Source: Bolinopsis microptera (Eukaryota; Ctenophora; Tentaculata; Lobata; Bolinopsidae). Taken from it: DNA of 64,000 nucleotides. The stretch lies in NCBI RefSeq assembly GCF_026151205.1, contig NC_087082.1, positions 18,197,401 to 18,261,400 of the forward strand, written 5' to 3'. Below the pieces are notes generated by a model. The model saw nothing but the letters and a program-made list of their open reading frames with translations. It ran no database searches and was not told the origin of the DNA. Made by a program: the position numbers and the translations under genes. Below are positions 6,501 to 27,402 of the stretch, piece by piece (position 1 is the stretch's first letter; every line of letters starts with the position of its first letter).

Positions 6501-7056
6501 CCTACAGTGGCAGAAATTGGAAGATCCCATAGAATTGAACAATCCTTAACAGTAAATGAATTTCAAACGGATCCTGGCTTACAACTCAGGAAATTACGTT
6601 GGCCAAACCACAAATCTTGGTCGAATATTTTGAAACCTAAGAAAACTGTGCTTACATTATACGCTAGTATGAACGAGCAACCTTCAGCCACACAAACAAG
6701 GACTCTACAAGTATTCTTTCCGCAGTTTTACAGAAGCTGCATCTCTGTTTTGAACCAAATAGTTTACACAGATGCTGTCCTAGAACAGCGTGTGATACTT
6801 ATGACGTCACACATTGCTCCAGTTGTAAGTAACACTCCATCACACATTTTAATAACTGCTATTAAAAGACAAATGATAATGCAGAACTCAAAAAGTTATA
6901 GTGTGCTTGCAGATCAGAAATATACAAAGGCAGTTGCAAGACTAGCCAGTCATGGTGGAATAACCAAAGGATTTGGATTATCTTTGGATATATTCCGAGT
7001 TCGTTTGGATCACTTTAGTAGGTATGCACGATATCATGCACTAATGCCGGGTACTA
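3534..7056 (+). CDS. Gene B, part 1: giant beta-rich repeat protein, interrupted at 7056
   Basis: The frame is open from 3516 (last upstream stop 3513-3515) and I start it at the acceptor-like TCTCAG. About 1,174 codons without a stop reach the edge of the inserted element at 7056; a further 15 codons and a TAA (ending 7103) come from the transposon end, not the gene. The product is basic, Ser/Thr/Val/Arg-rich and low in acidic residues, like gene A. It looks like a string of beta-sandwich repeats rather than an enzyme; no catalytic motif, signal peptide or membrane segment stands out. The frame continues without change on the far side of the element (27403 on). As assembled, this allele is broken by the insertion; whether other haplotypes are intact cannot be seen here. 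Confidence 0.75.
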
Positions 7057-8775
7057 CCCTCATAAAAATAAACCTTACTTTAAGTAAGGTTAGTGGGGTT
7101 TAAAGTAACTTTAATACCTTACTTAAAGTAAGGTATTAACCTTACTTTCTGACAAAAAAGTAAGGTTAAAAAGCTACTTTTTGCGCCGCGCAAAGTAACT
7201 TTAATACCTTACTTTAAGTAAGGTATAAACCTTACTTTCTGACAAAAAAGGAAGGTTAATACATTACTTTTTGCGCCGCGCGGATCCCTCACCCGCGCTA
7301 ACATTTCAATATTTATAATAAAGCGTGTTCCAGCAAAATTCTTTGAAGACCCTTTCCGAGGACAATCGAATTAAACAGACATCGGTGAAATTTTTCAATT
7401 GAGGCGATAATTTTGTATCGTATTCAGTTCGATGGTATCATACTTCAAGTTCAAATACTTCAACATGTTTCGCAATTCTTGCTCGTTGATAAGCTGATTT
7501 TAATTTAATGTACACGATAAACACTAGTATTGCGACAAAATTTCAAAGTGAATGTTATATACACAATTTCTTTATATTATATAAAGAAGTACACAGAGTT
7601 TCGAATCTCAAATTACAACAAAATGAAAATACTGTACGTTATAGTCTTAGTATTGGCTCTAAAAATATCCAATATATAACTCATTTTTGTTTTTAAATAA
7701 TAGTCCTTCAAAAACCCTAAAATCATAATTTCAGTCAGCTGTTGGCTGCGACCACCCGTTCAGAAGAAGATCATGTCTTCCGGCTCTTTAGATTAGAACT
7801 TCGTAATCTGGATAAAAAGGTGGATTAATTATGAGTTATCTCATTCTTTTCTAGTACAAAATGGATACTACTATACTAAGGTTGATTCAGCGACAAATCA
7901 AATATAAATATATGAAGGACAAGAGACAGCACATTGACAGAGTAATATTTTTACCTGTAATTAAAAGAGGCTCCGTAGTCGTAGTTTTTGATTGTGCGTT
8001 ATCAAGAGTGCCCAACAAAGCTTGCTCTCTGACATGCAATACAGTGGCGTAACGAAGGGTGTAACGAAGAGCCCCGCTGACCCCGCTGTGCGGACTGGGG
8101 GGGGGGGGGGGGGGGAGGGGGGGGGGGGGAGTTTACGAAAACTTGTCGTTTGAATGTGGGACAATTTTGAAAAACTTAACTAAGGTACTATACTAACATA
8201 CTAGTAAAACTGTACGTTTTGCTCTAGAAACACACTTTTTTAGAGATTTTACCGTGTCCTCTAAACTCTCTAAAATCACCTAATTTGTTCAATTTTAGGG
8301 AGGGGCGCCAACAGGGGGGGGGGGGGGGGGGGGGTGCATTTTCGCAGTGTGCGCCAACAGGCAACGTTACTCAACTGCTGCAATACACCGTGAAAATAAC
8401 CAAACTCCTTTTGCAACTCTGATTTCATGGGTATAAGATCTGTGGCGATGTTCTGTTCAGTTTCCTACAATCGTCAATCTGGTCACAAACCAAGTCGAGT
8501 GTTTTACCGTACCTGGTAGGTGGTGGGATTACAATATTCCGACATTTTGCTGATAGCGTGTGAAAAATTCTTGAAATAAAAACTTGGTAAAACAACCATC
8601 TCCATAATTTAGGATGATTAAACTGCTCTTCAACAAAATTAGATTAAACTAGCAAATATTACCTGTTGAGGACACTGTGGACACACAGGTTACCCATCAT
8701 GCTCCAGGCACTGTGTAGGAATAGCGTCTGGATGGAACTGGCATTGATTTAGACCGCACATTTCATATATAATAT
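7057..8775 (+). repeat. Left terminal inverted repeat of the giant element
   Basis: About 1.7 kb matching the right end in reverse complement almost base for base over long stretches. Visible differences are homopolymer length changes and a roughly 22-bp indel near 7510. The first 230 bp carry two copies of a module: an imperfect palindrome of TACCTTACTT arms, a CTGACAAAAAAG stretch, and TTTTTGCGCCGCGC. An open frame of 63 codons (7861-8052) occurs identically in both TIRs; I do not count it as a gene. Poly-G runs lie near 8097-8130 and 8316-8335. Confidence 0.85.
7060..7290 (+). promoter_or_regulatory. Subterminal palindromes and GCGCCGCGC modules (left end)
   Basis: Near the left tip the sequence alternates between hairpin-capable TAATACCTTACTT/AAGTAAGGTATTA arms (around 7110-7136 and 7202-7233) and the GC-rich word TTTTTGCGCCGCGC (around 7176-7192 and 7268-7281). 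Such paired subterminal motifs are typical of transposase-binding sites; that role is inferred. The mirror copies lie at about 27170-27390. Confidence 0.45.
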
Positions 8776-10222
8776 TGAATTACCATGTAAAATCCGGATT
8801 GGACTATTGTTTAATGTTTATGAGTCGCATTGTTGTAATGTATTCTGTGTAAAATTATCTTTATCCCGGTTCATGCAACAAGTAAAAATGCTCTTATTAG
8901 GGAAAGGAGTTTACTCGACGTTTCAATGTAACTACATCGAATTCATGATCTCAAATTATTTGTTATTATATAGTACTGTAGTGTTGAAAGTATTAAAATA
9001 CTGCATGAACTGAACAATAACGCCTTGACCGGATAGTAAACGAATGGTAGTAGACAGTATATAATTACTGTGTTAAAACCAAAGTATTTGTTGAAAAAGC
9101 CTTCAAGTTAAAAAGGTTTGAAGTTTTCCGAGCTGGAACAACCGTTATTCAAAAAAAGTAAAACTATTTTTATATAATAATGGTGCTATGTTTCAGGTGT
9201 TCTCTCCCAACTGTGCGATGCCTTGATATTGTCCACCTTTTCTGAGTTTGACTACTTCAATAGTGAAGAAAACTTTACGGGAATCCATCTGCTAATAAAT
9301 AGCATCTCGCCAACGATGAATGGATTAAATCGGACATTATTTTGAGATTATTTGAGATTATATTCATGTATGGTAAAAGCCATTACTTTCCATGGAAAAG
9401 AAGAAAGTGTTGCTTTCTTCATGAAAGTCACAGCAAACTCAGCTTCAGGCTTGAAAGAAAGAATCTTATTTAACGAAGTTATTTGTATAAATATACAGCT
9501 TTTTTGCAGAAAGGATGATCTTAAGTCTTAATTGGTGGGAGGAGAGAAGAACATTGGTTTAAAAGTTCTACAAGCAGGTTTTACGCTTAAGTTTTAATGC
9601 AAATGTCAAATAATATGTCATTCAAATTTGGAATTCGGTTTCTGAGACTATTGAAGCGGTCGTAAAGGCAAAGTCAAATATTTTGAACAAATATTTTGCA
9701 ACGTGCCGATTCATACTGAAGCCGTCACTAAAATCATCAGATTCAACAATTGATCTGACAGAGCACAAATATCTGAAAAGAAAAGCTCTTACCAGAGCTG
9801 TACAAGTTACAAAAACTAGTTCATGTCATTCTTCTTGTATAACTTCGAGATGGTAATTCTTCTTGTATAACTTCGAGATGGTAATATTAAACGACGTCGT
9901 GGATTGATACATAATTGTTATTTGTTAACCAGTTGCTGTGTTGTGTTGAAACAAAGCCGCGACTACGGACCTGTGTGAAGACAAGTTGAAACAAACATTC
10001 AAGAAGCTTTCGTAAATGACACCATTGATCAAGTTGATGGCACAACAACATGCTTTGTTACTGCTATAGGGTACTGCTATTAACTTGCAATCAAAAAGTA
10101 ACGAACCATGGTTACTAGTGGCGTGCATAGCTCGCAACGAGCTCCAAGCTACGGTGGCGTGCAGAGCCTGTCACTAGGTTTGCGCTACCTAGTTACGATT
10201 GATTGAGCTCGTAGCTCGTAGC
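8776..10222. other. Unassigned interior of the giant element
   Basis: AT-rich DNA next to the left TIR. Only short open frames (70 codons or fewer) without convincing splice signals. A 25-bp direct duplication is visible at about 9829-9880 (the phrase with CTTCTTGTATAACTTCGAG occurs twice). I see no gene here. Confidence 0.5.
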
Positions 10223-10230
10223 GAGTTCAA

Positions 10231-10411
10231 GGCAGTATCTAGATAGCCCGACCCCTGTCCACGAACAACTGTCCGCGAATTACTGTCCACGAACACCTGT
10301 CTACCAGATCATATTACTGCATAATAACAGTATCCCCTTAATCAAGCAACAGGTGTTGAGGTGTTTGTGACAATTGTTCGCGAACAGGGGTCGCTCTATC
10401 TAGGTACTGCC
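10231..10411. mobile_element. 181-bp hAT-like MITE with 8-bp target duplication
   Basis: The ends are inverted repeats: GGCAGTA...CTAGATAG...CGACCCCTGTCC at the left, and the reverse complement of the same blocks at the right, finishing TACTGCC. The flanks are perfect 8-bp direct repeats GAGTTCAA (10223-10230 and 10412-10419). An 8-bp duplication is the hallmark of hAT elements. Non-autonomous; no coding capacity. Confidence 0.8.
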
Positions 10412-10419
10412 GAGTTCAA

Positions 10420-11050: not shown

Positions 11051-11375
11051 AATTTAGCATACCACAATTAGTTGAGTGAAGGGAAGTGATTACGCAAATG
11101 AAAATACTATGCCAGGTATGGATAAACAAAATGATAAAAACATACCTGCAATTGGCAGGTTTAAATAAAATGTACCTGCAGTTGACAGGCGTCATACAAT
11201 ACAAACACTGCAATTGGCAGGTTTGACAAAATATACCTGCAGTTGACAGGCGTCATACAATACAAACACTGCAATTGGCAGGTTTGACAAAATATACCTG
11301 CAGTTGACAGGCGTCATACAATACAAACACTGCAATTGGCAGGTTTGACAAAATATACCTGCAGTTGACAGGCGT
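11051..11375 (+). repeat. 61-bp tandem repeat with palindromic cores, copy 1
   Basis: A lead-in of about 60 bp is followed by roughly four tandem 61-bp units. Each carries two imperfect palindromes, CCTGCAGTTGACAGG and CTGCAATTGGCAGG. The same lead-in and array occur in the same orientation at 14361-14660, so the two arrays bracket the single-exon gene at 11903-14182 as direct repeats. Confidence 0.85.
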
Positions 11376-11387
11376 TATACACTAAAT

Positions 11388-11814
11388 CAGGGACAAAAGG
11401 ATTTCGCGATTATTTTGATCGGTTTTTTGTTAATATGTGTTCAGTGCGAGTTATATTTCTATCTATATTATAATTCAAAGAATTATTTCTGTACGAACGC
11501 CCACGTGCAAATTAGACGAGAAATAGGTTGTTGCAAAGTAACCATGGTAACGGTGTTGAAATGTGTACGTGCACGTGCAAAGATTGTTTTAACGTCATTT
11601 TGTGGTAATTACGTTGTGTTTAGTGCGAGCTACATTTTAATGGGCTATTTACTCGGTTGTGACAGATATTTTTTGATGCTATAAAACTGACTACCAAAGA
11701 ATACTATTACCTCCCTCCCTGTGATCACGGGCTTTCCAGTATATACATAAAATTTGTCGCAAATAATGGGGAAAATCGCGATTCCGTACATGCAGCGATT
11801 TTCTTTTGTCCCTG
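11388..11814. mobile_element. 427-bp hAT-like non-autonomous element
   Basis: Termini CAGGGACAAAAG... and ...CTTTTGTCCCTG are inverted repeats, and CAGGG ends are typical of hAT elements. The same ends occur on the 149-bp MITE at 53290-53438, outside the giant element. A clean 8-bp target duplication could not be read here; only ACTAA is shared by the flanks. The interior (about 11540-11750) is similar to 24640-24870. Confidence 0.65.
11540..11750 (+). repeat. Dispersed repeat related to 24640-24870
   Basis: Shared order of blocks: AACCATGGTAAC, GTGCACGTGCAAAGATTGT, GTTGTGTTTAGTGC, TTTTAAT-GGC, AAACTGACT-CCAAAGAATACT and a CTCCCTGTGA-CACGGG block. The two copies are diverged and in the same orientation. 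Confidence 0.6.
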
Positions 11815-11902
11815 ATACTAATAGGCCACTGCAATTGGATATAGAATGAGGTTATGACTTAGACCAATAGGATATTGAGGGCCTTCATAACAATAAACAA
11901 TA

Positions 11903-14182
11903 CTACCTGAGGTTATTCTTCATGTGGCACAGATAAGAAAGTCCTATCATTATATCCATGATAGTTTGGCCTGTTATCGGTGCTGCATTCAGAGATGTAA
12001 CCTCAGCAATATATTTCTCAAGCGGGCCCAGTCTGCTCTTAACAGCCAGGGTATTGCACCTCTCTACTGTGCTCAGGTGCTTACGGACCACCACGCTACG
12101 AGCAGGCAGAAGCAAGGGCCGACCATTCAAGATGCTCGGGACAACACGTATCCAATCCTTCGTCATGGTCTCCCTACGTGCTGCTTTGTAGCGAGCATGA
12201 AGTGACCTCTGTAGACTCAGGTAGAGTGTGCTGGCCGACTTGGAGACATTTGAAAAGGCCTGCCGCAAAATCGCCTGATATATGGGCGACTCTCCTTGAA
12301 TCACAGCGATCTGCATCACCCGAACACAGTAAAACCACGCAACATCGCCAGCTGCTACAGTTTGGGCACTATTGAAGAATTTGAAGTCCGCAAACTGGGT
12401 AGAAGAAAATTTGCCTGGAGGAGATGGAAGCCTTGTGAGAACCGAAACCATAGGAATAAAATTCCTCGGGAAATAGTTTGGGTCAAGAGGAGAGTTGGTA
12501 AGTGGCGCAGCCAGTAAAGTCGGGGGCGCAGCCAGTGGAGTCGGGGGCTGTGGAGCGCACGGGAGCTGAGGAAAAGGGAGGAACTGCTGCTGAGGGTTAG
12601 GAGGTGGAGTAGAGTACATAACAGGATGATGAGGAGGTCGAGGACAGGCTGTGAAAGAGGATGTGGCTGCTGCTGATGGGTAGGGGGGAGCTATGTATGA
12701 GTAGGGGACTGGACCAGAAGAGGAGGCTGGGGCAGAGAAGGAGGAAGCTGCTACCCAGGAGGAAGCTTTTGATGTGTAGGAGGAGTAGGAGCAGGCTGGA
12801 GCAGAGAAGGATGGAGCTGCTGCGGAGGAGAGGATTTCTGCGGAGGAGGGAGTAGAGGAGGAGAGGGCTTCTGCGGAGGAGGGAGTAGAGGAGGAGGGGG
12901 TTTCTGCGGAGGAGGGAGTAGAGGAGGAGGGGGCTTCTGCGGAGGAGGGAGTAGAGGAGGAGAGGGCTTCTGCGGAGGAGGGAGTAGAGGAGGAGGGGGC
13001 TTCTGCGGAGGAGGGAGTAGAGGAGGAGAGGGCTTCTGCGGAGGAGGGAGTAGAGGAGGAGGGGGCTTCTGCGGAGGAGGGAGTAGAGGAGGAGAGGGCT
13101 TCTGCGGAGGAGGGAGTAGAGGAAGAGGGGGCTTCTGCGGAGGAGGGAGTAGAGGAGGGGGTTTTTGCGGAGGATGGAGCAGATGAGGAGGGAGCTGCTG
13201 CTGCGGAGGAGGGAGCTGCTGCGGAGGAGGGAGCTGCTGCGGAGGAGTGAGCTGCTGCTGGGTAGGAGGAGGAGGAGCAGGGAAGACCAGAGGAGGCTAC
13301 TGCTGCCCAGGTGCGAGCTGTTGCGGAGGAGGGGGCTTCTGATATGTAGGAGGAGGAGGAGGAGGGGCAGGCTGGATCAGATGAGAAGAGAGCTGCTGCT
13401 GCGGAGGAGGGAGCTGCTGCGGAGGGCGGAGCTGCTGCGGAGGAGTGAGCTGCTGCTGGGTAGGAGGAGGAGGAGCAGGGAAGACCAGAGGAGGCTACTG
13501 CTGCCCAGGTGCGAGCTGTTGCGGAGGAGGGGGCTTCTGATATGTAGGAGGAGGAGGAGGAGGGGCAGGCTGGATCAGATGAGGAGAGAGCTGCTGCTGC
13601 GGAGGAGGGAGCTGCTGCGGAGGAGTGAGCTGCTGCGGAGGAGGGAGCTGCTGCGGAGGAGGGAGCTGCTGCGGAGGAGTGAGCTGCTGCTGGGTAGGAG
13701 GAGGAGGAGCAGGCACGAGTTGAGGAGTAGGTTACTGCTACCAAGGAGAGACCTGCTGATGCAGATGGGTAGGAGGAGGATGAGGAGGATTTAGGGGCTT
13801 CCTCTCGAGGAGTTGACGGTGGAGTCGGATGGTGATTTCTTCTCCAGTTTTGACTCTGAACCTTAGACATGTTCGATGGTGGCTGGAGGCTGGAGGCTGG
13901 CTGGCTCCAGGATCGAACCATGGTCGGGTCTGCCGCTCTTTGTTTAGATACGCCAAACTTCTTCAGCGCTTCTGCTTTCATATCATCCGTACGTTTCCTT
14001 AGCAACCGCATTTGATTTTTTTTGTTGCTATCATTCTCCTTCCTACACTCCCGATTCATACAGCAGCCATCGTGCAATTCGAGGACATTCTCCGTGGTGC
14101 TCATAGTACAAATCTTGCATACCCTGAGCGATGCTGGATCGAACTTAGGGTATTCCAGTCCGGGTTGCGGAATCATGTCCAT
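11903..14182 (-). CDS. Cys-rich / Ser-Ala-Pro repeat protein, single-exon cargo gene
   Basis: One uninterrupted frame of 759 codons from an ATG at 14182. The frame stays open upstream, but that part is AT-rich and a splice acceptor (TTTTCCAG) lies four bases before this ATG, so a non-coding 5' exon is likely. Residues 20-46 hold C22-x2-C25, then H37, C40, C41 and C46, a possible zinc-binding site. A basic helix-rich segment follows. About residues 120-540 are low complexity Ser/Ala/Pro/Thr encoded by a minisatellite, including 33-bp units reading SSSTPSSAEA(P/L). The last 200 residues have normal composition (FADFKFFNSAQTVAAGD, WFYCVRVMQIA) and look like a folded helical domain. No transposase motif seen. 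It lies 1.1 kb downstream of the multi-exon gene on the same strand and is flanked by direct 61-bp arrays. Function unknown. Confidence 0.6.
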   Translation of the reverse strand: MDMIPQPGLEYPKFDPASLRVCKICTMSTTENVLELHDGCCMNRECRKENDSNKKNQMRLLRKRTDDMKAEALKKFGVSKQRAADPTMVRSWSQPASSLQPPSNMSKVQSQNWRRNHHPTPPSTPREEAPKSSSSSSYPSASAGLSLVAVTYSSTRACSSSSYPAAAHSSAAAPSSAAAPSSAAAHSSAAAPSSAAAALSSSDPACPSSSSSYISEAPSSATARTWAAVASSGLPCSSSSYPAAAHSSAAAPPSAAAPSSAAAALFSSDPACPSSSSSYISEAPSSATARTWAAVASSGLPCSSSSYPAAAHSSAAAPSSAAAPSSAAAAPSSSAPSSAKTPSSTPSSAEAPSSSTPSSAEALSSSTPSSAEAPSSSTPSSAEALSSSTPSSAEAPSSSTPSSAEALSSSTPSSAEAPSSSTPSSAETPSSSTPSSAEALSSSTPSSAEILSSAAAPSFSAPACSYSSYTSKASSWVAASSFSAPASSSGPVPYSYIAPPYPSAAATSSFTACPRPPHHPVMYSTPPPNPQQQFLPFPQLPCAPQPPTPLAAPPTLLAAPLTNSPLDPNYFPRNFIPMVSVLTRLPSPPGKFSSTQFADFKFFNSAQTVAAGDVAWFYCVRVMQIAVIQGESPIYQAILRQAFSNVSKSASTLYLSLQRSLHARYKAARRETMTKDWIRVVPSILNGRPLLLPARSVVVRKHLSTVERCNTLAVKSRLGPLEKYIAEVTSLNAAPITGQTIMDIMIGLSYLCHMKNNLR
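12830..13740 (-). repeat. Coding minisatellite inside the Ser-Ala-Pro gene
   Basis: Tandem units of 33 bp (about 12830-13165), then 12-27 bp GCTGC/GGAGGAGGGA units, and a roughly 180-bp block duplicated in tandem (about 13170-13550). All keep the reading frame, so protein length is probably polymorphic. The + strand is purine-rich. Confidence 0.8.
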
Positions 14183-14360: not shown

Positions 14361-14660
14361 GTGTTTCAGCATGCCACAATTAGATGAATGAAGGGAAGTG
14401 ATGACACAAATGAAAATACAAGCATAAATAAAATAATAAAATATACCTGCAGTTGACAGGCGTCATACAATATAAACACTGCAATTGGCAGGTTTAAATA
14501 AAATATACCTGCAGTTGGCAGGCGTCATACAATACAAACACTGCAATTGGCAGGTTTGATAAAATATACCTGTAGTTGACAGGCGTCATACAATACAAAC
14601 ACTGCAATTGGCAGGTTTGACAAAATATACCTGCAGTTGACAGGCGTCATACAATATGTG
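14361..14660 (+). repeat. 61-bp tandem repeat with palindromic cores, copy 2
   Basis: Same lead-in (CCACAATTAG-TGAATGAAGGGAAG) and same 61-bp unit as 11051-11375, in direct orientation, with about four units. Confidence 0.85.
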
Positions 14661-15297: not shown

Positions 15298-15933
15298 TTA
15301 AAAATAACTGACCATAGTGTCTAACACACTACTAGGACCTGGTGTGTGGTCAGAATCGTACGAACTCAAGGTTCGCTCGCACCATTCGTCATACTGTTCG
15401 GGAGTCTTAGTTTTACTAATATCCCTCATTTTCCTCTTCAGCTTTTGCCTCAACCACCGCCGGGTGACCTTCTGTGGCGTTCCGACGTGCAGATGTAACG
15501 CTTTTACTATCGAGTCTGTGATGTTATCCTCTAGGCAGTTATCTTGCACATCCTGCCCTCCCAGATTCGATACTCCCAAACAGCTCTGAATCTCTGGCAG
15601 GACGTGCCTTGCCAATAATACCTCTATCATCTTATATAACTCACTCAACTTTACTAAACCTACTCCCCTCAAATCTCCTACCATCTCCTTCACTAAATTC
15701 TCCTCACTCGCTACTAACTCTATGTCCTTCCTATCCTCTCTGACTCTATGAATTACTGTAACAGCTGGTTCTTCTAGTCCTGATGAATATTGAATGATCA
15801 GTTGATAGCTAAATAAAACGATTTAGTTTAACTGGCTGATTTGTAGAAATTTTAAGTCACACGACAGTTTGAAACTAATTAGGTGATTACGCAGAAAATG
15901 TTCACCTAACGTCTATTTTTAACCTTGGATACT

Positions 15934-15976
<43 letters not shown>

Positions 15977-18900
15977 GGGGGCCGGGGAGGGGGGCCAGGG
16001 GGATCAAAATCCATTCCCAAAATTGAAATTTGAGGTAAAATGGTAAAATGGTTTTTTTTGGGGTTGGACACCCAAAAAATGAACCCCTTAGTACCATGTA
16101 CTAACTGTTTTTCTGGAAAATGGGCAGTAGACCCACCAGTTAGTACCATGTATGATCCCCCCCCCCGGGATACTTGTCACTTACTACAGCGCTAGACTTA
16201 CGTGTACGTAACCCAGGGCCAGCTTGTTTGTTGAGCTGCATTCTTAAGTTGGCACAGGTAGCACGGAGGACTGCCATACCTTCTCCTTGTTTCTCCACCT
16301 TTGCTTTAAGCTCGGCAATATCTTAAAAAAATCAGAAATATTTGGGCAGTTCAGATAAAAAACTTGATAATGTATCGGCTGGTAAGGTAACGCAACAATT
16401 GACCCCTTATGTAATTACAATGGGGTCAATCGATCGAGTTAGGGTTTAGGGTTAGGGTTTGGGTAAGGGTTAATTGTATTAAATTATATTGGGGGGGGGG
16501 GGGGCATTGTCGGGGGTCAATCATCGGGTGTCAATTGTCGGGTGTCGATTGTGAGGCACCCGAGGCATTGTCGGGGGTCAATTGTGGGGGTCAATCATCG
16601 GGTGTCAATTGTCGGGTGTCGATTGTGAGCAGTCAATTGTCGGGGGTCAATTGTCGGGGGTCAATTGTCGGGGGTCAATTGTCGGGGGTCAATTATCGGG
16701 GGGTTAATTGTCGGGAGGTCACTTGTCGTGGGGTCCATTGTGGGGGGGTCAATATTCTTTCGTATTTATATGAATGCTATTTCAAAGAGAAATAAGTAAC
16801 ATTATAGATAATAAATTTCTCGTAAAACCCATACTTCATAGAAATAAGTTCTTACATTATACATATTCATGAGTCGCTTTAGATGGCTTGAACTGAATCT
16901 TTGGGTTTTGAGTTCCTAATAACTCAATTTTGAAAACATTTATCTATTTTGTCAACCAACCCACGACAAACGTTGATTTACCTTGCTGCTGTTGCTGAAG
17001 CATCGTCTGCATTCCTGTGATATTGTTATAACCTCCCATCATCTGCATCATCTGCATGTGCATAGGGCCAGGGTACATTGGATAGCCAGGCGAGTGAGTG
17101 GGTGCAAGTGGTGGAGGTGCAGGTGGTGTGATGTGAAAATGATCCTGTGAAGACATGTGTAATATAAGGAACAATATAGAAAATCTGTGGTTACAACAGA
17201 CATAAATAGAAAACTGCACGGTACTATGTGGTCTGAACAAACACATCCATACCATTTAAAAATCAAGCACTATTGCTCTTAAACTTAGGTGCTCTACTTG
17301 TAGCTAGCGGTATGAACTCGTATATGAATTTTCATCGAGATTGGACAAAAAATGACTGATTTATGAGCCAAAAACCATATGCCCATATTTGGGCATACGC
17401 ACCAAATTTAATCGATTTTGGCCCATAAATTAGTTAAATATCAATATTCTGAATGAAACTTACTTTATATGAACTTAGGTAAGCCTTAACTACACATTCT
17501 CTATTATTATCAGCTCATTATCTACCTAACTGTGGATTCTGTGTTCAAATGAAAAAAATGAACAAAATCTTCCATATCTCAGTTCGCGATATTTGCAAAA
17601 CTGACTTCGCTCAAAACAATACAACTTAATAGGGTTTCATTATTTTTACATGACATTTTCAGAATCAACGTATAATCGTATTTCGACCTTAGGGTTTAAT
17701 ATAATTTTGTTATAGTTAGCCCTTTAAAAATATTTGGCGGCCAAATTCTCAAAAATGCCGCGCAAATTTTAGATGGTACCCCCTCAAAAGTTCGGTCATC
17801 GGTCCTAATTTGTTAGTCAACTGCTATCTCGAAACCAAGTTTCACAAGAAATCAGGGTGAACCCACTATACAATTTGACGGTCATTTCCAGCTTTTCTCA
17901 TGGCCAAGTAACACCAAACTCAGTAAGTATATAGATTTTGACTGATGTGTTTTGATCATTTGTTCTTATGTTCATTATTCAACTTTAACATGACAACTTA
18001 CCGCTAGCACTGGACGTGTTGGTTGAGGAGTAGTCGGCTGCTTCTGCGAGTATTTTAAAGCTTTATCACGGGAAGATGGTTACATGTCATTATAAATATG
18101 AAATACAAGTTCTTTCCCTACAAAAAATTACAAAATATCAATAAAACAAATACCTTACTCGGGAATATTATAGCGGGTTAATTTATGACTGGGAAAATTA
18201 ATGACCGGGAAAAATATGGCGGAATGTTCCAAAACCCATCACTTTATCCCAGTCATAATATTCCCGAGTAAAGTATTTAATAAAACAAATATTTATTTTT
18301 ACGGCACAATCAATAAATAAATCAGGGGAGGCTTGAAGAGGTTTCAAGTGCCGAAGGCCACTGCTTATCTTTAGGATTTGAGAGTGACCTGTGCTTGAGA
18401 CCCCCTCAACCATCCACTACGTCAATATACTTATTATACAAATATAGAAAAATGTAATTATCTAAAATTGCTTATTGGTCTAGTTTGGTGACACAGGAGA
18501 GCCCAGCTGAGTTTTAGTTTCAGTTTAGGTTTTAAATCATAGTTTAAAAGGTTAGCCATGTTTCATGGCAGAGAGTGATATCATGTGTGCAGAGCCGTAC
18601 CGGATGTAGAATTTGAGATATAATATAGATTAGTTACCATGTATTAGGGTCATATCGATTTTGAAGGGACTATACTTCAAAATCGATGCAGTTTAATAAC
18701 AAGGTTTAAAGGTTTACCTGGCGATGCTCATCCTCTATATCTAGAGCCATCTCAGCTATATGAGATGGTAACTCGTTCTCCTGAAACGCAAGAAGTTACG
18801 TAATAAAATCGAGAATCAGAAAATCAGAAGGTTGCCTTTCTTGACATGACCTTTGCTACTTTGTCATTGACTAAATTTGAATAGCTAGAAGTTAAATACT

Positions 18901-21900
18901 TTTAGCCAATGATTACCGTGATTTGTTTTCAGCTGCTTCATATCACTGTAGTAATATAATATGTAATATTATCTAATCTAATTTATATAAAAAAATCTTA
19001 CAGGAAATGCCTTGGTGGTGGGGGCCTTCGTCTTCTTCCTTTTCCCGCATGTCTGTTGGATTAAAATAGGTATGATGTGAGATTTGAACATTAATTAGCG
19101 TCCCAATCAGTAAGAAATCATGAATTGTTAATTAGGTTGTCACGACTGAATTTTAATTCTTTCAGCTGACACTTACCATTACATCCGGATCCTCAGCGGC
19201 CGGGATTGCTTTTCTTTTCTGGACCTGTAGAAACATATACTTTTTATGTCCTATGCATACACTCCTTGATAGTCATCTTGATCTAGTATCTTTGTTTCAC
19301 ACAATAGAGCATAAGTTTTGTGGTTTATCCACTGGGCTTAGAGTTTGTGTTTAAGCTACCAAATTTTATCACGACTGAATTTTAATTCTTTCAGCCGACA
19401 CTTACCTTCACTTTCTCAGCCGGGATTGCTTTTCTTTTCTGGACCTGTAGAAACATATAATATCACTGTATTATGCAGATACATGCTACTTAAAGTGGGG
19501 GGGGGGGGGGGGGGGGGGGTGGAGTGTGCTTGGTTGATATGAATTGGATATGTTGTGTAAATGAGTGACTGTGTTCTAGCTGTCTTTCGTACATGATGGA
19601 TATGAATTGGGTGGTGTGTTACTACCTCAGTAATAGTGAAAACTTACCGAGGCCAGGGTTTGGGTGTGTGTATCTGATGAAATAGTTGTGTAACTGGTGG
19701 GTGATGAATGTGTAGTGTGAATGATGAGTATTACAGATAAATATATTTCTCCTCTTTACAGATCTAATGAATGTCGATATTTGCATCCCCGCACACGCAC
19801 GTAGCACTACATTCCTATATTGCAGGGTGATCAATTCCTACTTTCCACATCAGAGGCTAGTCCGTAAAAATAGATCTAGCCAATATTTATTAAAACACTT
19901 AAGTCTATCTTTTGAGTCTTTTAGTGCTCTTTCCTTTTTCAGATGAGCTATTTTCCAAATTTTTATTTATGATTAAAAACGATTAAAAACACTTACCACT
20001 TTCTTTGCTGGAGTCTTTTCCTCCTGCAAGTAGTTATTATTATAATAGCTTTATCACGCGATAGATATGTATATATTTGGTGGATCATAACAGCAATAAC
20101 AGCACAACAGCAACCGTTGTAAGGAACGTTTCTAATGTCGTTTCTAATGTCTACAATAAATTTGAATAGTTCAATATTTTCGGTCGATAATTACAATAAT
20201 ATCTTCCTCTGTTTTTCTACGAACAATACTTAGTTTATGACATGATATTATGTCTAATCTAATTTATATGAAAAAAAATCTTACAGGAAAAGCCTTGGTG
20301 GTGGGGGCCTTCGTCTTCTTACTTTTCCCGCATGTCTGTTGGATTAAAATAGGTATGATGTGAGATTTGAACATTAATTAGCGTCCCAATCAGTAAGAAA
20401 TCATGAATTAGCTTGTTAATTAGGTTGTCACGACTGAATTTTAATTCTTTCAGCTGACACTTACTATTACATCCGGATCCTCAGCGGCCGGGATTGCTTT
20501 TCTTTTCTGGACCTGTAGAAACATATACTTTTTATGTCCTATGCATACACTCCTTGATGGTCATCTTGATCTAGTATCTTTGTTTCACACAATAGAGCAT
20601 AAGTTTTGTGGTTTATCCACTGGGCTTAGAGTTTGTGTTTAAGCTACCAAATTTTATTATTTATTATTTATTATAATATCACTGTATTATGCAGATACAT
20701 GCTACTTAAAGTGGGGGGGGGGGGGGGGATGGGGAGGGGTGGAGTGTGCTTGGTTGATATGAATTGGATATATGTTGTGTTTCTACCTATCTAAAACCTT
20801 ATCAAATTCAGTCCATCAAAATTTGGCTTGATCCGATTTAATAATATATCAAATTTAAATGCGAAATTAACCTTCATTCGTAAAAAATGAACACAAATAT
20901 TCTTTGATTCGATATATTTTTCGAATGGGTGATAATAGCTCATAATTCCAGAAATAGATCATCCCAATCAGGCACTTGTTGACCAAGCTTTTAAGTCGAC
21001 CTGTGTAAACTGACTGCTCCCCCCCCCCCCCCCTGGCCCTGTATCATAAATAATATAATAATATAGTAGTAAAAATAACGCATGACTATAATCGTGCACT
21101 ATATCATAGGATGTATATTTGTATATTGTAAACATCCTTACTGATTCAAATCCTTATTATGTATTTTAGCCCGATAATGAACATTACAGTTTAGATGATG
21201 AATGGTTTGGGTTGATGTGCTAACTAACAAAATGTATGTATTCAATATGCCCACATGGTTTCTCATCTCCTTCCAATCCTGAAGTAATACGAGAAAATTA
21301 TAGTTTTAAATTTAAAAGAAAAGCGGTAAATAGTTTACCTTGTTCTGGATGGAAATATTATTATCTGGACCCTTCGCACAGTACTCCCTCAATCTAACTT
21401 CAGCGATGGCCTCGTCTGGAGAATTCGATAAGGGATAAGGTATACTTTTTGAATAACAAAACTGTTACTTTAAGATAATATAATATATTAATTGTTTAAA
21501 TTTAACTTTAATTAATCTTAATATGGTATTTATTCAAAATAACGCCCTAGCTAGATGATACGTATGATGCAGTATGTTCTGTCTACATACCTTACGAGAC
21601 ATATTTAAATGGTACGAAAGTCTGTGTTTTTTCGAAAAAACACCATATTTTCGCAATACCAAAATTTAATTCACCATCATTATTTTTCCCCGAATCATTT
21701 TCATTTTGCTTGATTATGACTTTATCGATTTACTATCAACTACTCAATACTTTGTACTTGGTAACTGAACTGTGGTGCATAGCCTCTGCAACTAGATTGG
21801 AGTTGGATTCTTCTGGTATCAGTGATTAGTAAATGTGTATGTCATTTAAATATTGAACCTACTCTGCAACCTGGTAGCGCAACTGACACAAAAACAAAAA

Positions 21901-22744
21901 TGTTGGGCTGGTTTGAACATAACCTAGTAAATAATCCACTTGAAACCGTCTGGAGAAACTACTCAAAATGTCAATTTTTGTAGTCAACAGGCACAAAGAA
22001 GTATTGTTAGCAATTGCGTCCTTACCCTCATACACAATTTTTCCATTTCCGTGATTAATTCATGCAATATGTATTTTTTAAATCCCAATATACCATGATT
22101 TAATTTGGGGTACAAAATCAAAAATGTCTCTCTAAACAAATCCCATATTTTCGTTCTCACCGCGACCGTAATTATGTCGAACATAAATATGTCTCTTAAG
22201 GTAGTTCTAATGAGTAATGACAGGTAATTTTTTACATAAATTATACTCACCAGCTGCAAAAGCAATAACTCTAGCTGGAAAAGTTTTTGTATTGTACTTT
22301 ACTTGAACCATCTGTCCAACAGCTGCTCTACTTTGTAACTGCATAAAGAACATAAAGTATTATTTCAGTTATAAACAACATAAAGTGAATGGGCATGAAG
22401 ATAACCATTAAATTATTAGAAACTTTACATAGATACCAACCTTGACATTTCGTCAGGTTGGTATTAACAGGGTAAAAATTTAGGAGAAGTATAAAAGTAG
22501 GACGATTTCAGAGTAAAATGACAACAGCGAAATGATATATAATATTCCAAGCCCAAGTTATTGCCAGTTAAAGGTTGGCACTAATGTGTAAATTGTTATT
22601 AAACCTCTAAAGCATGGAGGACAATTGAAAGCTGTGTAAGTAATTGAAATATTATTTAATACTCACATCTTCTTTGTTCACTATCGAAACTCCTGTTGAC
22701 TTCTTACCCTCCTGACCCCAGTTCACAACAACGAAATTACTCAT
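15298..22744 (-). CDS. Multi-exon cargo gene: putative chromatin-type protein
   Basis: Exons, all with GT-AG borders and matching phases: 22667-22744, 22251-22338, 21339-21415, 21255-21278 (weak GTGGGC donor, optional), 20465-20512, 20285-20335, 19997-20023, 19406-19444, 19177-19224, 19002-19052, 18718-18780, 18002-18043, 16982-17144, 16202-16321, 15298-15779. They give 466 aa (458 without the optional exon). Residues 1-81 (MSNFVVVNWGQEG ... VGQMVQVKY ... FPARVIAFA) look like a small Tudor/SH3-like barrel seen at the N-terminus of many invertebrate nuclear proteins. Residues 90-177 are Lys-rich repeats (VQKRKAIPA three times, TCGKRKKTK twice) with nuclear-localisation character. Residues 199-266 are Pro/Met/Gln-rich, 267-300 a coiled coil (IAELKAKVEKQ), and the C-terminus is helical (LHLHVGTPQKVTRRWLRQKL). 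A BEN-type DNA-binding domain is possible by architecture, but its diagnostic residues were not seen. Probably a nuclear regulator carried by the element. Confidence 0.75.
15934..16167. mobile_element. 234-bp MITE with G-run/C-run ends
   Basis: The left end is C followed by a long G-run, the right end a C-run followed by G, so the ends are inverted. Both flanks read GGATACT (15927-15933 and 16168-16174), a 7-bp target duplication. It sits in an intron of the multi-exon gene, about 22 nt past a splice donor (16196-16201 on the - strand). Confidence 0.7.
16438..16472 (+). repeat. Interstitial telomere-like repeat
   Basis: About five units of TTAGGG/TTTAGGG type (GTTAGGGTTTAGGG...). TTAGGG is the usual metazoan telomere repeat. 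Too short to be a chromosome end. Confidence 0.6.
16490..16755 (+). repeat. GGGGTCAATTGTCG minisatellite
   Basis: About 16-18 imperfect units of 14-15 bp centred on CAATTG, preceded by a G-run of about 14. It lies in an intron of the multi-exon gene. Confidence 0.8.
17270..17560 (-). repeat. Diverged relative of the 706-bp MITE
   Basis: Reverse complement of this stretch matches 25380-25640 in block order: CGTATGCCCAAATATGGGCAT, then AAGCTCAT/GGCTCAT, CCAATCT-GATG-AAATTCAT. The ends are not clear. Intronic in the multi-exon gene. Confidence 0.5.
18966..19560 (-). repeat. Intragenic duplication, copy A (three small exons)
   Basis: Matches 20252-20790 closely from ATCTAATCTAATTTATAT to the G-run and GGAGTGTGCTTGG. 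Copy A has an extra partial copy (about 19368-19458) that supplies a third version of the VQKRKAIPA exon. Confidence 0.9.
20252..20790 (-). repeat. Intragenic duplication, copy B (two small exons)
   Basis: Direct duplicate of 18966-19560 with a few substitutions and small indels; carries exons 20285-20335 and 20465-20512. In place of the extra exon of copy A it has a TTATTTATTATTTATT stretch. Confidence 0.9.
21416..22250 (-). other. Intron of the multi-exon gene
   Basis: AT-rich. A 93-codon open frame (21984-22265) has no splice support beyond overlapping the neighbouring exon. A small hairpin (GTTTTTTCGAAAAAAC) is near 21628. Nothing else recognised. Confidence 0.4.
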
Positions 22745-23190
22745 TTCGAAAAGTTAAGTTGGTTAAATATAACTTTAGGGATAACGTTGTATACAGAACA
22801 TCCTGTAATTAGTGTTGAAAGTATTAAAACTCAAGTATCAAATCACTAAATGGAAAAATATAAATATCTTACCACCAATATTAATAAGTCATTAACAACA
22901 ACTTTATCTACAAAAATTCAAATAAATTAAATGAAGCAAGCAATAAGTTTTATTTTACATTCCTTTAATCGGTTTTAAGAAGTGATTTAAGTAGTAGAAA
23001 TTTGCAAATGGACAACTCTCATGAATTGAACGAAATTAGAGATATAGCTGCATGCAAGAGATGTTGGGAAAATCTTTTTCAAGGTTACAGTTTACCGCAT
23101 TAAGGTATTTTTAATTTTTGTCGGTAAGATCCTGTTTTATAATAATTCCTTTAATCATAAATAAAATAAGAGCTTAAACCACGAATCAGT
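22745..23190. other. Upstream region of the multi-exon cargo gene
   Basis: AT-rich DNA that should hold the 5' UTR and promoter of the - strand gene starting at 22744. No clear TATA or initiator could be chosen. Confidence 0.3.
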
Positions 23191-23204
23191 TAACTAGAAG
23201 TTAA

Positions 23205-23659
23205 CTTGAGGTAATATTCTTTTGGTGATTGTATATATAATATAATAATTTTAAAAATTTGGGGTCTTATCAAAGCTTTGTAAATGGATATCATCACAGA
23301 TTTTTCCCTGATAATCAGATTTCTAACAATCCAACATATCATTCTGTTGGCTTTAGATATTGAAGCCTTTATCTGTTCATTCCATAGCAGAGAGTTATGG
23401 GTTATAACTCCCAAGTCTTTTTCCTGTACAGATTCTGCCAATGTAACTCCATTAAGAGAATAACTTGGGTTATCGTTAACATCTAAATGCATTACCGAAC
23501 ACTTAGTAGGATTAAACTTTAAAAGCCATTTACTCTCCCACATCTCTAGTTCGTTCAGATCATTAACTATAGTTTCATGCTCGGAGGCATTAGCTATAAG
23601 CTTAAGATCATCAGCAAATATTTTAACTTTACTTTTAATGTTATCTGGTAAATCATAGA
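23205..23659 (-). pseudogene. LINE reverse-transcriptase fragment
   Basis: About 150 codons in one frame. FADD (the RT catalytic motif) is followed by W-x3-LLKFNPTKC-x-VMHL, then EKDLGV, LLWNEQI, KANRM and YKALIRP. This order is the palm-to-thumb part of non-LTR retrotransposon RT (Jockey/CR1-like group). It is truncated at both ends: there is no endonuclease or 5' part, and the match ends just after ALIRPQ. Confidence 0.85.
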
Positions 23660-23841
23660 TTTGCCATAATAAGGCTTTTGTCCTGGCTGGTCTTGGCTGC
23701 CAGAAGTGTTGCTACTCGTTTAAAGAACATGGTAGCTTGTGGGCCCATACCTCCGGTGGTCGAGAATACAAGGCAATTGCACACAAACCTCGCTTCTCGA
23801 TTAGGAACATGACAGACAACAATAAAAATTCCGTATACCAC
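23660..23841 (-). pseudogene. Second retroelement ORF fragment
   Basis: The translated phrase LVFSTTGGMGPQATMF followed by KRVATLLAAKT resembles the C-terminal tail of some retroelement RT proteins. Old, truncated, and abutting the LINE fragment in the same orientation. The family cannot be fixed from this piece. Confidence 0.5.
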
Positions 23842-23898
23842 TGCAGCTGATCTCCAGGTATAATGTATGGCTTGGAGGTTAGCGCTCGATTCCTAAAC

Positions 23899-24511
23899 GA
23901 TTGAATATTGGTGAGCCGCGCGCAAAAATTAAATGTTAAGTTTAAATTCATAACTATGGATTAAATTATATTTTTTAAAATTGATAAGTCGTTTGAAACT
24001 TTTTATACATAAGATGTTAAAAACAAAAGCAAATAAATAAATAATTAATTAGTACTTAAAGTATAATTTAATTCATTTTGAAATTCCAATTTTGCGTTTG
24101 GCTCACTGTACAATTTAAAAATTTAATTTTCAAGCAGGTATAATTTATTTTAATAAGCTCCGCCGGTTGTTTCAAAAGTCAACAAAATAGTTATAAATGA
24201 TTGAAAGATTTTAAAATAAAACATTTTATCAAGCTTTACGGTAACAAATTCACATAGCTATGTGTATACGCGTACTGCGTGACGCGCTTAAGCGAAATGG
24301 CTTTGGTTAGAGCAAGCGAAAAAATTTAAGTAAAATAAAATGAAACTTGTTAAGTACAAAATAATTATTTAATTATATTTGTTTTTCTTTTTGATATCTT
24401 AAGTGAGAACATTCTCAAATGACTTTTCAATTTTAGAAATATAACTAAGTTCATATTTTTGAATTTAAACTTGACATTTAATTTTTGCGCGCGGCTCACC
24501 AATCTTCAATC
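23899..24511. mobile_element. 613-bp MITE with about 45-bp inverted ends
   Basis: The left end GATTGAATATTGGTGAGCC continues with GCGCGCAAAAATTAAATGT; the right end is the reverse complement with two or three mismatches. AT-rich interior, no ORF. The GCCGCGCGCAAAAA block resembles the GCGCGGCGCAAAAA block in the giant element's TIR. Confidence 0.75.
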
Positions 24512-24519
24512 ACCAATCT

Positions 24520-24635
24520 TCAATTAGTTCTCCTCAGTCCTCCTCATAGTCGTCCTCCTCCTGAGTCCTCCTCATCCTCCTCCTGAGTCATCCTCCCCAG
24601 TCCTCCTCCTCCTTCTCCTCCTCCTCAAAAGATTG
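24520..24635 (-). repeat. CTCCTC-rich minisatellite
   Basis: Pyrimidine-rich imperfect repeats (CCTCCTC, GAGTCCTCCTCAT) of about 115 bp. Purine-rich on the - strand. Confidence 0.7.
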
Positions 24636-24639
24636 CAAG

Positions 24640-24870
24640 TAACCATGGTAACGAGGGTTGTTACACGCACGGTACGTGCACGTGCAAAGATTGTTAAAAC
24701 GGCATTTTCATCGGTTAATTTGATATTATATCGTTGTGTTTAGTGCAAGCAAAATTTTAATCGGCTGTATCTTCGGTGGGGGATGAATAATTTTTGATAC
24801 GATTAAAACTGACTGCCAAAGAATACTGTTAGGTTCCTCCCTGTGACCACGGGTTTTCTAGTTATATATA
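24640..24870 (+). repeat. Dispersed repeat related to 11540-11750
   Basis: Same block order as described for 11540-11750, followed by a TATATATATG stretch at about 24861-24890. Confidence 0.6.
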
Positions 24871-24974
24871 TATGTATATATATATATGTAATTCGAACAA
24901 TTGAAACAAATCAAATTGGCGGGCAAACGATCCGTTTCATGATATGTATAAAAACAATACCAAGCATCAGTATG

Positions 24975-27400
24975 TATATATAAAATGTGCGGTCTAAATC
25001 AATGCCAGTTCCATCCAGACGCTATTCCTACACAGTGCCTGGAGCATGATGGGTAACCTGTGTGTCAACAGTGTCCTCAACTGGTAATATTGGGGGGGGG
25101 GGGGGTGGCAACCATATTAAAGTATATTAAAATATAGGATTTTTCCCGATTTTGACCCGGGGATATACTTTAATATACTTTAATATACCTACAATATACT
25201 TTAATATATCCCTATCTCCTTGGAGGCCTACATCAAAAATTGTTGCCCAAAATAAGCTTGAAATGCAATTCTTAATCGATTCCAAAAAGTTCTTGAAAAA
25301 ATATTGAAAACTGATGGAGTTATTTCAATTTTAATGAAGTCATTTTTGCTAGTATTCCGAACCGAGATATTATGTGCAATTTTCCCAATTTTGTTTATGG
25401 AGGTCTTTTTACTTAGTATCCACTATATTCAACAAACACTGAGTTATATCTTTCACATAGAGTTAGTCTCATTAAAAAATATTGAAATTTTATCGAATTT
25501 GGGCAAAAGCGAATTTGGGCAAAAGCGTATGCCCAAATATGGGCATATTTTTTTAAGCTCATAGCTCAGCCAATTTTTGACCAATCTGGATGGAAATTCA
25601 TGTACTAGTCCTAAAACAGGCTTATCTTGCGAATCTGAGTGAAAAATATAGTTCATCATGTAAATCTTAACGAAGAATATAAATCTTCTAATTGTAGGTA
25701 TATTAAAGTATATTAAAATGTATGATTTTTTCCGATTTTGACCCGGGGATATACTTTAATATACTTTAATATGGTTGGCCCCCCCCCCCCCCCCCCCAAT
25801 ATTTGCTAGTTTAATCTAATTTTGTTGAAGAGCAGTTTAATCATCCTAAATTATGGAGATGGTTGTTTTACCAAGTTTTTATTTCAAGAATTTTTCACAC
25901 GCTATCAGCAAAATGTCGGAATATTGTAATCCCACCACCTACCAGGTACGGTAAAACACTCGACTTGGTTTGTGACCAGATTGACGATTGTAGGAAACTG
26001 AACAGAACATCGCCACAGATCTTATACCCATGAAATCAGAGTTGCAAAAGGAGTTTGGTTATTTTCACGGTGTATTGCAGCAGTTGAGTAACGTTGCCTG
26101 TTGGCGCACACTGCGAAAATGCACCCCCCCCCCCCCCTGTTGGCGCCCCTCCCTAAAATTGAACAAATTAGGTGATTTTAGAGAGTTTAGAGGACACGGT
26201 AAAATCTCTAAAAAAGTGTGTTTCTAGAGCAAACGTACAGTTTTACTAGTATGTTAGTATAGTACCTTAGTTAAGTTTTTAAAAGTTGTCCCACATTCAA
26301 ACAACAAGTTTTCGTAAACCCCCCCCCCTCCCCCAGTCCGCACAGCGGGGTCAGCGGGGCTCTTCGTTACACCCTTCGTTACGCCACTGTATTGCATGTC
26401 AGAGAGCAAGCTTTGTTGGGCACTCTTGATAACGCACAATCAAAAACTACGACTACGGAGCCTCTTTTAATTACAGGTAAAAATATTACTCTGTCAATGT
26501 GCTGTCTCTTGTCCTTCATATATTTATATTTGATTTGTCGCTGAATCAACCTTAGTATAGTAGTATCCATTTTGTACTAGAAAAGAATGAGATAACTCAT
26601 AATTAATCCACCTTTTTATCCAGATTACGAAGTTCTAATCTAAAGAGCCGGAAGACATGATCTTCTTCTGAACGGGTGGTCGCAGCCAACAGCTGACTGA
26701 AATTATGATTTTAGGGTTTTTGAAGGACTATTATTTAAAAACAAAAATGAGTTATATATTGGATATTTTGAAGGGCCAATACTAAGACTATAACGTACAG
26801 TATTTTCATTTTGTTGCAATTTGAGATTTGAAACTCTGTGTACTTCTTTATATAATATAAATAAATTGTGTATATAACATTCACTTTGAAATTTTGTCGC
26901 AATACTAATGTTTATCGTGTACATATCAATTATCAAACGACTTAATCATTAAATTAAAATCAGCTTATCAACGAGCAAGAATTGCGAAACATGTTGAAGT
27001 ATTTGAACTTGAAGTATGATAACATCGAACTGAATACGATACAAAATTATCGCCTCAATTGAAAAATTTCACCGATGTCTGTTTAATTCGATTGTCCTCG
27101 GAAAGGGTCTTCAAAGAATTTTGCTGGAACACGCTTTATTATAAATATTGAAATGTTAGCGCGGGTGAGGGATCCGCGCGGCGCAAAAAGTAATGTATTA
27201 ACCTTCCTTTTTTGTCAGAAAGTAAGGTTTATACCTTACTTAAAGTAAGGTATTAAAGTTACTTTGCGCGGCGCAAAAAGTAGCTTTTTAACCTTACTTT
27301 TTTGTCAGAAAGTAAGGTTAATACCTTACTTTAAGTAAGGTATTAAAGTTACTTTAAACCCCACTAACCTTACTTAAAGTAAGGTTTATTTTTATGAGGG
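24975..27400 (-). repeat. Right terminal inverted repeat of the giant element
   Basis: Reverse-complement partner of 7057-8775. It is longer only because a separate 706-bp element (25092-25797) sits inside it, duplicating AATATT. The same terminal modules (TTACTTTAAGTAA-type palindromes, GCGCGGCGCAAAAA, CTTTTTTGTCAG) appear in mirror order. The close match of the two arms argues for a young element or for gene conversion between the arms. Confidence 0.85.
25092..25797. mobile_element. 706-bp MITE nested in the right TIR
   Basis: Bounded by a G-run at the left and a C-run at the right, then inverted CCATATTAAAGTATATTAAA ends and internal palindromes around GACCCGGGGATATAC. Flanked by AATATT at 25086-25091 and 25798-25803. 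The left TIR of the giant element keeps the empty site, a single AATATT between GGT and TGCTAG when read in the matching orientation, which proves a 6-bp target duplication. No coding content. Confidence 0.92.
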
Positions 27401-27402
27401 TA

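What the first reader, a model, noticed from the sequence alone, without database searches (positions are those of the whole stretch)
7055..27402. A 20.3-kb TIR element carrying intron-bearing genes, inserted in frame-resolvable fashion into a giant exon
Seen: reverse-complementary ends (CCCTCATAAAAATAAACC), 1.7-kb inverted repeats, a TA on both sides, and a host reading frame that matches on both flanks only if the element plus one TA is discounted. Known: TA duplications are typical of Tc1/mariner-IS630 and Stowaway elements, normally 1-5 kb or shorter. Inference: this is an unusually large cargo-carrying DNA transposon, with a spliced - strand gene and a Cys-rich gene but no recognised transposase, so it could be mobilised in trans or use a novel enzyme. 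It may be a new class of giant animal transposon.
Basis: partly seen in the sequence, partly recalled or inferred. Interest (0 to 1): 0.88.

Follow-up and report, generated by a model that had tools for sequence, protein, structure and literature searches.

The report
Twenty-kilobase gene-carrying TIR transposon
A 20-kb piece of DNA with mirror-image ends, carrying two genes of its own, appears to have jumped as a unit into the middle of a very long protein-coding exon; it looks like a large transposon that does not recognisably encode the enzyme that moves it.

Summary
A 20,344-bp segment (7057-27400) sits between two TA dinucleotides; leaving it out with exactly one TA restores a 2,631-codon frame without internal stop. 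Its ends are 1.7-kb inverted repeats: 15 mismatches in 1,695 aligned bases (99.1%), plus 60 gap columns and a 0.7-kb insert in one arm; no difference in the outer 300 columns.

Inside are two minus-strand genes: a 14-exon gene placed by eye (458 aa, 13 of 13 introns GT-AG) and a 759-aa ORF. Neither reaches a Pfam cut-off. Six-frame Pfam scanning found no transposase, only a reverse-transcriptase fragment, itself below cut-off; an enzyme split into short exons could be missed.

Best reading: a recently moved, gene-carrying, probably non-autonomous DNA transposon with TA target choice, mobilised in trans. TA does not prove Tc1/mariner: fungal Harbinger-like and EnSpm-like lineages with TA duplications are described. 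No genome is held, no second copy was found and the organism is unidentified, so 'new class of giant animal transposon' is untested.

The parts
7055..7056 (.). left copy of the TA target duplication
27401..27402 (.). right copy of the TA target duplication
7057..8778 (+). left terminal inverted repeat (about 1.72 kb), uninterrupted arm
   Evidence: 15 mismatches in 1,695 aligned bases to the right arm, 60 gap columns, no difference in the first 300 columns; no copy of the terminal motif at the inner edge
24967..27400 (-). right terminal inverted repeat, interrupted by a nested insert at 25092-25797
7073..7223 (+). three perfect 17-bp palindromes CCTTACTTWAAGTAAGG starting at 7073, 7117 and 7207 (17, 61 and 151 from the tip); two lie in 90-bp tandem repeats; candidate recombinase-binding sites (function inferred)
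27234..27384 (-). mirror set of three 17-bp palindromes at 27234, 27324 and 27368
15298..22744 (-). gene 1: 14 exons 22744-22667, 22338-22251, 21415-21339, 20512-20465, 20335-20285, 20023-19997, 19444-19406, 19224-19177, 19052-19002, 18780-18718, 18043-18002, 17144-16982, 16321-16202, 15779-15298; 458 aa; 13 of 13 introns GT-AG; boundaries chosen by eye
   Evidence: codon models from other genes favour its frame; Pfam best DUF16 E 0.062, below cut-off
11903..14182 (-). gene 2: uninterrupted ORF of 759 aa; ATG lies 4 bases after a TTTTCCAG acceptor-like site; short Cys-rich N-terminus, S/A/P-rich repetitive middle, about 200-aa C-terminal region
   Evidence: no Pfam match above cut-off (best 0.086 for the N-terminal piece), no PHROG up to E 0.1, C-terminal part no PDB sequence below E 0.25
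14435..14656 (-). 61-bp minisatellite, upstream copy of a direct repeat flanking gene 2
   Evidence: 95.5% over 222 columns
11134..11381 (-). 61-bp minisatellite, downstream copy of the direct repeat flanking gene 2
23190..23711 (-). fragment of a reverse transcriptase, nested retroelement remnant (LINE type by recall)
   Evidence: PF00078 RVT_1 E=0.0019, 18.4 bits, below the curated cut-off of 29.6
25092..25797 (.). 0.7-kb nested element in the right arm with AATATT on both sides; the uninterrupted site is kept in the left arm near 8655-8660
23899..24511 (.). small inverted-repeat element (arms 179 columns, 82%)
3516..7056 (+). host exon, left part, up to the insertion
27403..31757 (+). host exon, right part, same frame

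Best explanation
A large, gene-carrying, probably non-autonomous DNA transposon that inserted as one 20.3-kb unit at a TA dinucleotide in a long coding exon. Shown: the ends, the TA on both sides, the restored frame, the near-identical long inverted repeats, the palindrome arrays at both ends, one spliced gene model and one long ORF inside, several nested repeats, and no recognisable transposase. Inferred: a transposase supplied from elsewhere in the genome binds the palindromes at the two ends and moves everything between them by cut and paste. The interior (spliced gene, reverse-transcriptase and small inverted-repeat remnants) was captured from host chromosomal DNA, or gathered piece by piece, before the last jump. 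Because the interrupted frame still has no stop, the last jump is young, probably younger than at least some of the nested repeats.
For: Restored 2,631-codon frame with one TA retained. Terminal inverted repeats with 15 mismatches in 1,695 aligned bases, none in the outer 300 columns. Symmetric palindromes found only at the ends. Inner edges of the arms lack the terminal motif, so the arms are not two complete small elements. Six-frame Pfam scan of the element shows no transposase, integrase or DNA polymerase, although the same scan picked up a 173-aa reverse-transcriptase fragment. A codon-based exon scan reported, on the minus strand, only exons of genes 1 and 2 and, on the plus strand, three stretches antisense to gene 2.
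Against: Only one copy is known, so mobility rests on a single junction pair. No partner transposase could be looked for, since no genome is held. The exon scan was trained on these same genes, recovered only 3 of the 14 exons of gene 1, and gave 2 + 2 hits in 16 kb of control sequence, so it cannot exclude a transposase in short exons; Pfam likewise misses split or unknown enzymes. The review passage seen says DNA transposition efficiency drops significantly above 6 kb of cargo, though it adds that 100-200 kb cargoes were mobilised in artificial constructs (PMC6431247). The block of codons just right of the junction is the one that fails the codon test. Host origin of the genes and the order of nested inserts and last jump are inferred.
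Confidence: 0.6

Rival explanations
1. An autonomous giant transposon of an undescribed superfamily: gene 1 and/or gene 2 are its own transposition proteins, and an intron-rich gene is normal for it.
For: Both reading frames are uninterrupted and lie on one strand between the TIRs. No match above cut-off in Pfam; no PHROG up to E 0.1 for gene 2 or the last exon of gene 1; in PDB sequences nothing below E 0.097 for the last exon of gene 1, 0.25 for the end of gene 2, and nothing up to E 10 for the first 97 residues of gene 1. The gene 1 frame is supported by codon models trained on other genes.
Against: Gene 2 has a large S/A/P-rich repetitive middle; gene 1 shows a K/R-rich stretch, a P/M/Q-rich exon and no recognisable nuclease. 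Single-sequence AlphaFold models of the gene 1 last exon and the gene 2 end are uninformative either way (mean pLDDT 43.4 and 38.1).
Confidence: 0.15
2. A known TA-duplicating superfamily (Tc1/mariner, a Harbinger-like PHISTA type, or an EnSpm-like ESTA type) whose transposase in this copy is lost or too split to see; the size comes only from nested insertions and capture.
For: TA duplication; end-clustered repeats fit multi-site binding (recalled for EnSpm and for IR/DR elements); Tc1/mariner uses TA (passage of PMC7325037) and TA lineages in Harbinger-like and EnSpm-like groups are described in fungi (PMC12730594).
Against: No match to any transposase model in six frames; termini CCC...GGG differ from the CA...TG that PMC12730594 gives for most of the CMCT group.
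Confidence: 0.18
3. A virus-like giant element (Maverick/Polinton type) or an assembly artefact.
For: Size and TIR length are in the Polinton range as recalled; inverted arms can arise by chimeric reads (recalled).
Against: No polymerase, integrase or capsid hit in the six-frame Pfam scans; 2-bp TA rather than the 6-bp duplication recalled for Polintons; the arms differ by 15 substitutions, 60 gap columns and a 0.7-kb insert and lie 16 kb apart, unlike a read artefact. No reads were available.
Confidence: 0.05

Closest known systems
Gene-capturing non-autonomous TIR elements (Pack-MULE and the like)
   Same: TIRs enclosing genes, no recognisable transposase of their own; moved in trans (for Pack-MULEs: passage of PMC6431247)
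   Different: The passage seen gives Pack-MULEs at most 7 kb, mostly 1-2 kb, with gene fragments; here 20.3 kb with an apparently complete 14-exon gene, TA duplication and 1.7-kb TIRs
Tc1/mariner-IS630
   Same: TA target duplication, TIRs
   Different: No transposase found; far larger than the members recalled; 1.7-kb TIRs with palindrome arrays
[quoted passage not shown]
   Same: Large size, TA duplication (ESTA); end-clustered repeats (recalled for EnSpm)
   Different: Termini CCC...GGG instead of the usual CA...TG; no EnSpm-like transposase found
Maverick/Polinton
   Same: Scale of 15-20 kb and long TIRs (recalled)
   Different: No polymerase, integrase or capsid gene found; TA rather than a 6-bp duplication (recalled)
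Teratorn and KolobokP
   Same: Oversized or composite-like DNA transposons of animals
   Different: Both have a transposase; Teratorn is 41-182 kb with 18-bp TIRs; KolobokP has long terminal direct repeats and 3-5 bp duplications

Membership tests
Tc1/mariner-IS630 | TA target-site duplication | tested here: met
   family trait from passages of PMC7325037
Tc1/mariner-IS630 | DDE/D transposase of the family | tested here: not met
   six-frame Pfam scans; split or unknown enzymes would escape
Harbinger-like with TA (PHISTA) / ISL2EU | Harbinger-type transposase | tested here: not met
   lineage description seen in passages of PMC12730594
EnSpm-like with TA (ESTA, CMCT group) | CA...TG termini (stated for most of the group) | tested here: not met
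   termini CCCTC...GAGGG; trait read in PMC12730594 section 16
EnSpm-like with TA (ESTA, CMCT group) | RAG1/EnSpm-like transposase | tested here: not met
piggyBac / Kolobok | TTAA duplication | tested here: not met
   flanks ACTA / TATT, only TA shared
Maverick/Polinton | protein-primed PolB, retroviral-type integrase, capsid genes | tested here: not met
Gene-capturing non-autonomous TIR element | TIRs enclosing genes, no recognisable own transposase | tested here: met
   host origin of the genes not shown
Gene-capturing non-autonomous TIR element | autonomous partner with the same ends; host paralogues of the cargo | not testable with these tools
   no genome held for the window

The most novel reading that the evidence does not exclude
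A new superfamily of giant, TA-targeting eukaryotic (probably animal) transposons with long palindrome-bearing TIRs whose movement protein is one of the two orphan genes (intron-rich gene 1 or gene 2), an enzyme type not in present libraries.
Probability: 0.15. Interest if true: 0.82.

Novelty: new variant of a known kind. Interest (0 to 1): 0.5.

Why it matters
If it is mobile as read, it shows that an apparently complete, intron-bearing gene and several kilobases of chromosome-like DNA can move as one TIR unit in a eukaryotic genome (taken to be an animal's, not shown). The review passage seen treats natural cargo above about 6 kb as inefficient (PMC6431247). The preserved frame around the insertion makes the event easy to test by PCR or long reads.

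Tried and rejected
Other copies: the exact end pattern and an inner TIR pattern each gave 0 hits in viral contigs and in genome contigs. Protein look-ups in viral contigs with gene 2, the last exon of gene 1, the right part of host ORF B and host ORF C: 4, 5, 1 and 1 stretches matched a pattern, none encoded a relative at E 1e-3. Right part of ORF B in phage records: none. Own-genome search not available. In the window, the element shares three short stretches with its right flank (76, 27 and 30 bp), none of them TIR; the end pattern with up to 3 mismatches gave 5 matches against 3.6 expected, only the two true ends exact.

Gene identity: Pfam, PHROGs, PDB sequences, Rfam and tRNA. Nothing above a curated cut-off except the spurious bZIP below. 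In the element the sub-threshold Pfam hits were RVT_1 0.0019, Peptidase_C21 0.14, Profilin 0.16, DUF6431 0.095 and GHMP_kinases_C 0.088. My first thought that gene 1 is a BEN-domain gene was recall; no BEN match was listed at max_evalue 10 (HMMER's filters drop most weak hits), so I dropped it. AlphaFold without an alignment was uninformative for both proteins tried, so no fold search was made.

Composite transposon (two whole 1.7-kb elements): rejected because no terminal motif sits at the inner ends of the arms. LTR-like reading of the direct repeats around gene 2: considered; they are mostly a 61-bp minisatellite, without clear LTR ends.

Spurious: a bZIP hit at 55956-60593 comes from reading a 4.6-kb minisatellite.

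Literature (full-text searches; rows listed of papers found: 20 of 20, 1 of 1, 1 of 1, 1 of 1, 15 of 83, 10 of 18, 12 of 50): judged by the titles and abstract starts listed, none describes an element of this build. Read further: passages of PMC6431247, abstract and passages of PMC9587614, passages and sections 15-16 of PMC12730594, passages of PMC7325037. This is not evidence of absence from print, above all not from Repbase.
Full report
What is there. The window reads as eukaryotic (spliced gene, minisatellites, reverse-transcriptase remnant; inference); no genome is held for it and I could not name the organism. There is no tRNA, no Rfam family at gathering score, and no Pfam family with a believable host gene name in what was scanned: the long ORFs, selected ORFs, and six frames of the element and of 34.8-55.9 kb. 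Outside these stretches only long ORFs were scanned. At 7055-7056 and 27401-27402 stand two TA dinucleotides. Between them lie 20,344 bp that begin CCCTCATAAAAATAAACC and end with the reverse complement.

Insertion. The left ORF (3516-7056) and the right ORF (27403-31757) form one frame of 2,631 codons without an internal stop when the element and one TA are left out; the other five frames of the same DNA hold 129 to 205 stops. Keeping both TAs or losing both breaks the frame, so a two-base duplication is the simplest account. A codon model trained on the neighbouring ORFs (2-2809 and 31654-34800) prefers this frame over all five others in 12 of 13 blocks of 200 codons; the one failure is codons 1201-1400, the first block wholly right of the junction, and the last 31 codons were in no block. 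The host protein is strongly basic (net +190 of 2,631 residues). Its two parts gave no Pfam or PHROG family up to E 0.1 and no PDB sequence below E 0.28; the right part had no relative in phage records or viral contigs.

Ends. The arms run from 7057 to 8778 and from 27400 to 24967. The right arm is split by a 0.7-kb element (25092-25797) with AATATT on both sides; the left arm keeps the uninterrupted site. With that insert set aside, the alignment has 1,755 columns: 1,680 identical, 15 mismatches, 60 gap columns, and no difference in the first 300 columns. Each end holds three perfect palindromes, CCTTACTTWAAGTAAGG, at 17, 61 and 151 from the tip; the window has no other match within two mismatches, and 100 shuffles gave a mean of 0.00. 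The left end folds far better than its shuffles as single-stranded DNA (z -10.4). These arrays are the best candidates for recombinase binding; that function is inferred. The inner edges of the arms carry no copy of the terminal motif, so the unit is not two whole small elements flanking a passenger.

Cargo. Gene 1 runs from 22744 to 15298 on the minus strand. I placed 14 exons by eye from the sequence; 13 of 13 introns are GT-AG and the product is 458 aa with a terminal stop. Because boundaries were chosen to give an open frame, I tested it with models from other genes: those from the host ORFs and from gene 2 both score its frame positive and the other five negative. Its last exon is 482 bases open up to its stop; of 4,000 samples of that length from its introns none was open in the frame read. 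Exons 4-5 and 8-9 lie in a duplication (413 columns, 96.9%). Gene 2 is a 759-aa ORF (14182-11903), with a short Cys-rich N-terminus, a repetitive S/A/P-rich middle and an orphan C-terminal part. The codon evidence for its C-terminal part is weak: its frame is best of six in two models, but the mean scores are below zero. It lies between two direct copies of a 61-bp minisatellite. A simple exon scan reported nothing beyond these two genes except three plus-strand stretches antisense to gene 2, but it was trained on these genes, recovered only 3 of 14 exons of gene 1, and gave 4 hits in a 16-kb control region scanned on both strands, so short exons of a further gene are not excluded.

Enzyme. 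Six frames of the element, with X at stops, were scanned against Pfam (the outer 0.8-0.9 kb of the right TIR was covered only through its left-arm counterpart). The best hit is a reverse-transcriptase fragment, E 0.0019 and below the curated cut-off; four others at E 0.088-0.16 are noise-level. One minus-strand frame against PDB sequences gave nothing at E 0.1. I expect that a compact mariner-type transposase would have been seen (inference from the detection of the RT fragment); one cut into short exons, or an unknown enzyme, could be missed.

How it works, most likely. A transposase made elsewhere binds the palindrome arrays at both tips, cuts the unit out and joins it at a TA (inferred). 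The interior looks like ordinary chromosome (a spliced gene, reverse-transcriptase and small inverted-repeat remnants), which fits capture between two ends. At least one insert (25092-25797) came after the arms were formed, since the other arm keeps the empty site. The intact frame on both sides says the last jump is recent. The order of the nested inserts relative to that jump is inference.

Place among known kinds. TA fits Tc1/mariner (PMC7325037 passage), but passages of PMC12730594 describe fungal Harbinger-like and EnSpm-like lineages with TA duplications, so TA alone does not decide. No transposase of any of these was found, and the CCC...GGG tips differ from the CA...TG given for most of the EnSpm-like group. 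I therefore do not file it in a superfamily. In build it works like a gene-capturing, trans-mobilised TIR element, only far larger than the Pack-MULEs described in the passage seen (at most 7 kb; PMC6431247). The same passage says efficiency falls above 6 kb of cargo but that artificial constructs moved 100-200 kb.

Limits. The title's 'giant animal transposon class' is possible and untested.

Noticed in passing
2-2812, 3516-7056 + 27403-31757, 31654-34803: Three long plus-strand ORFs of similar, strongly basic, S/T/V/K/R-rich and Cys-poor composition (936 aa open at the window edge, 2,631 and 1,049 aa); codon models from one predict the frame of the others. No Pfam family up to E 0.1; PHROGs only one weak hit for the third (E 0.073). 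They may be one giant orphan gene.
   Followed up: partly
55981-60584: 4.6-kb minisatellite (periods 42/63/105), open in several frames; its translation gives a spurious bZIP Pfam hit.
   Followed up: yes
18966-19369 and 20245-20657: Duplication inside gene 1 that copies two short exons (96.9%).
   Followed up: partly
11134-11381 and 14435-14656: Direct repeats built of a 61-bp minisatellite flank gene 2, so gene 2 may itself be a nested unit.
   Followed up: partly
43313-43909 and 46080-46688: 0.6-kb direct repeat, 95% identical, outside the element.
   Followed up: no
36639-37682: Minus-strand 347-aa ORF that may be a host gene exon; only a sub-threshold FdhE_N Pfam match (E 0.00025, 21.8 bits against a cut-off of 28.7).
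   Followed up: no
11531-11749 and 24633-24872: A repeat at 77% identity occurs twice within the element, more diverged than the TIR pair.
   Followed up: no
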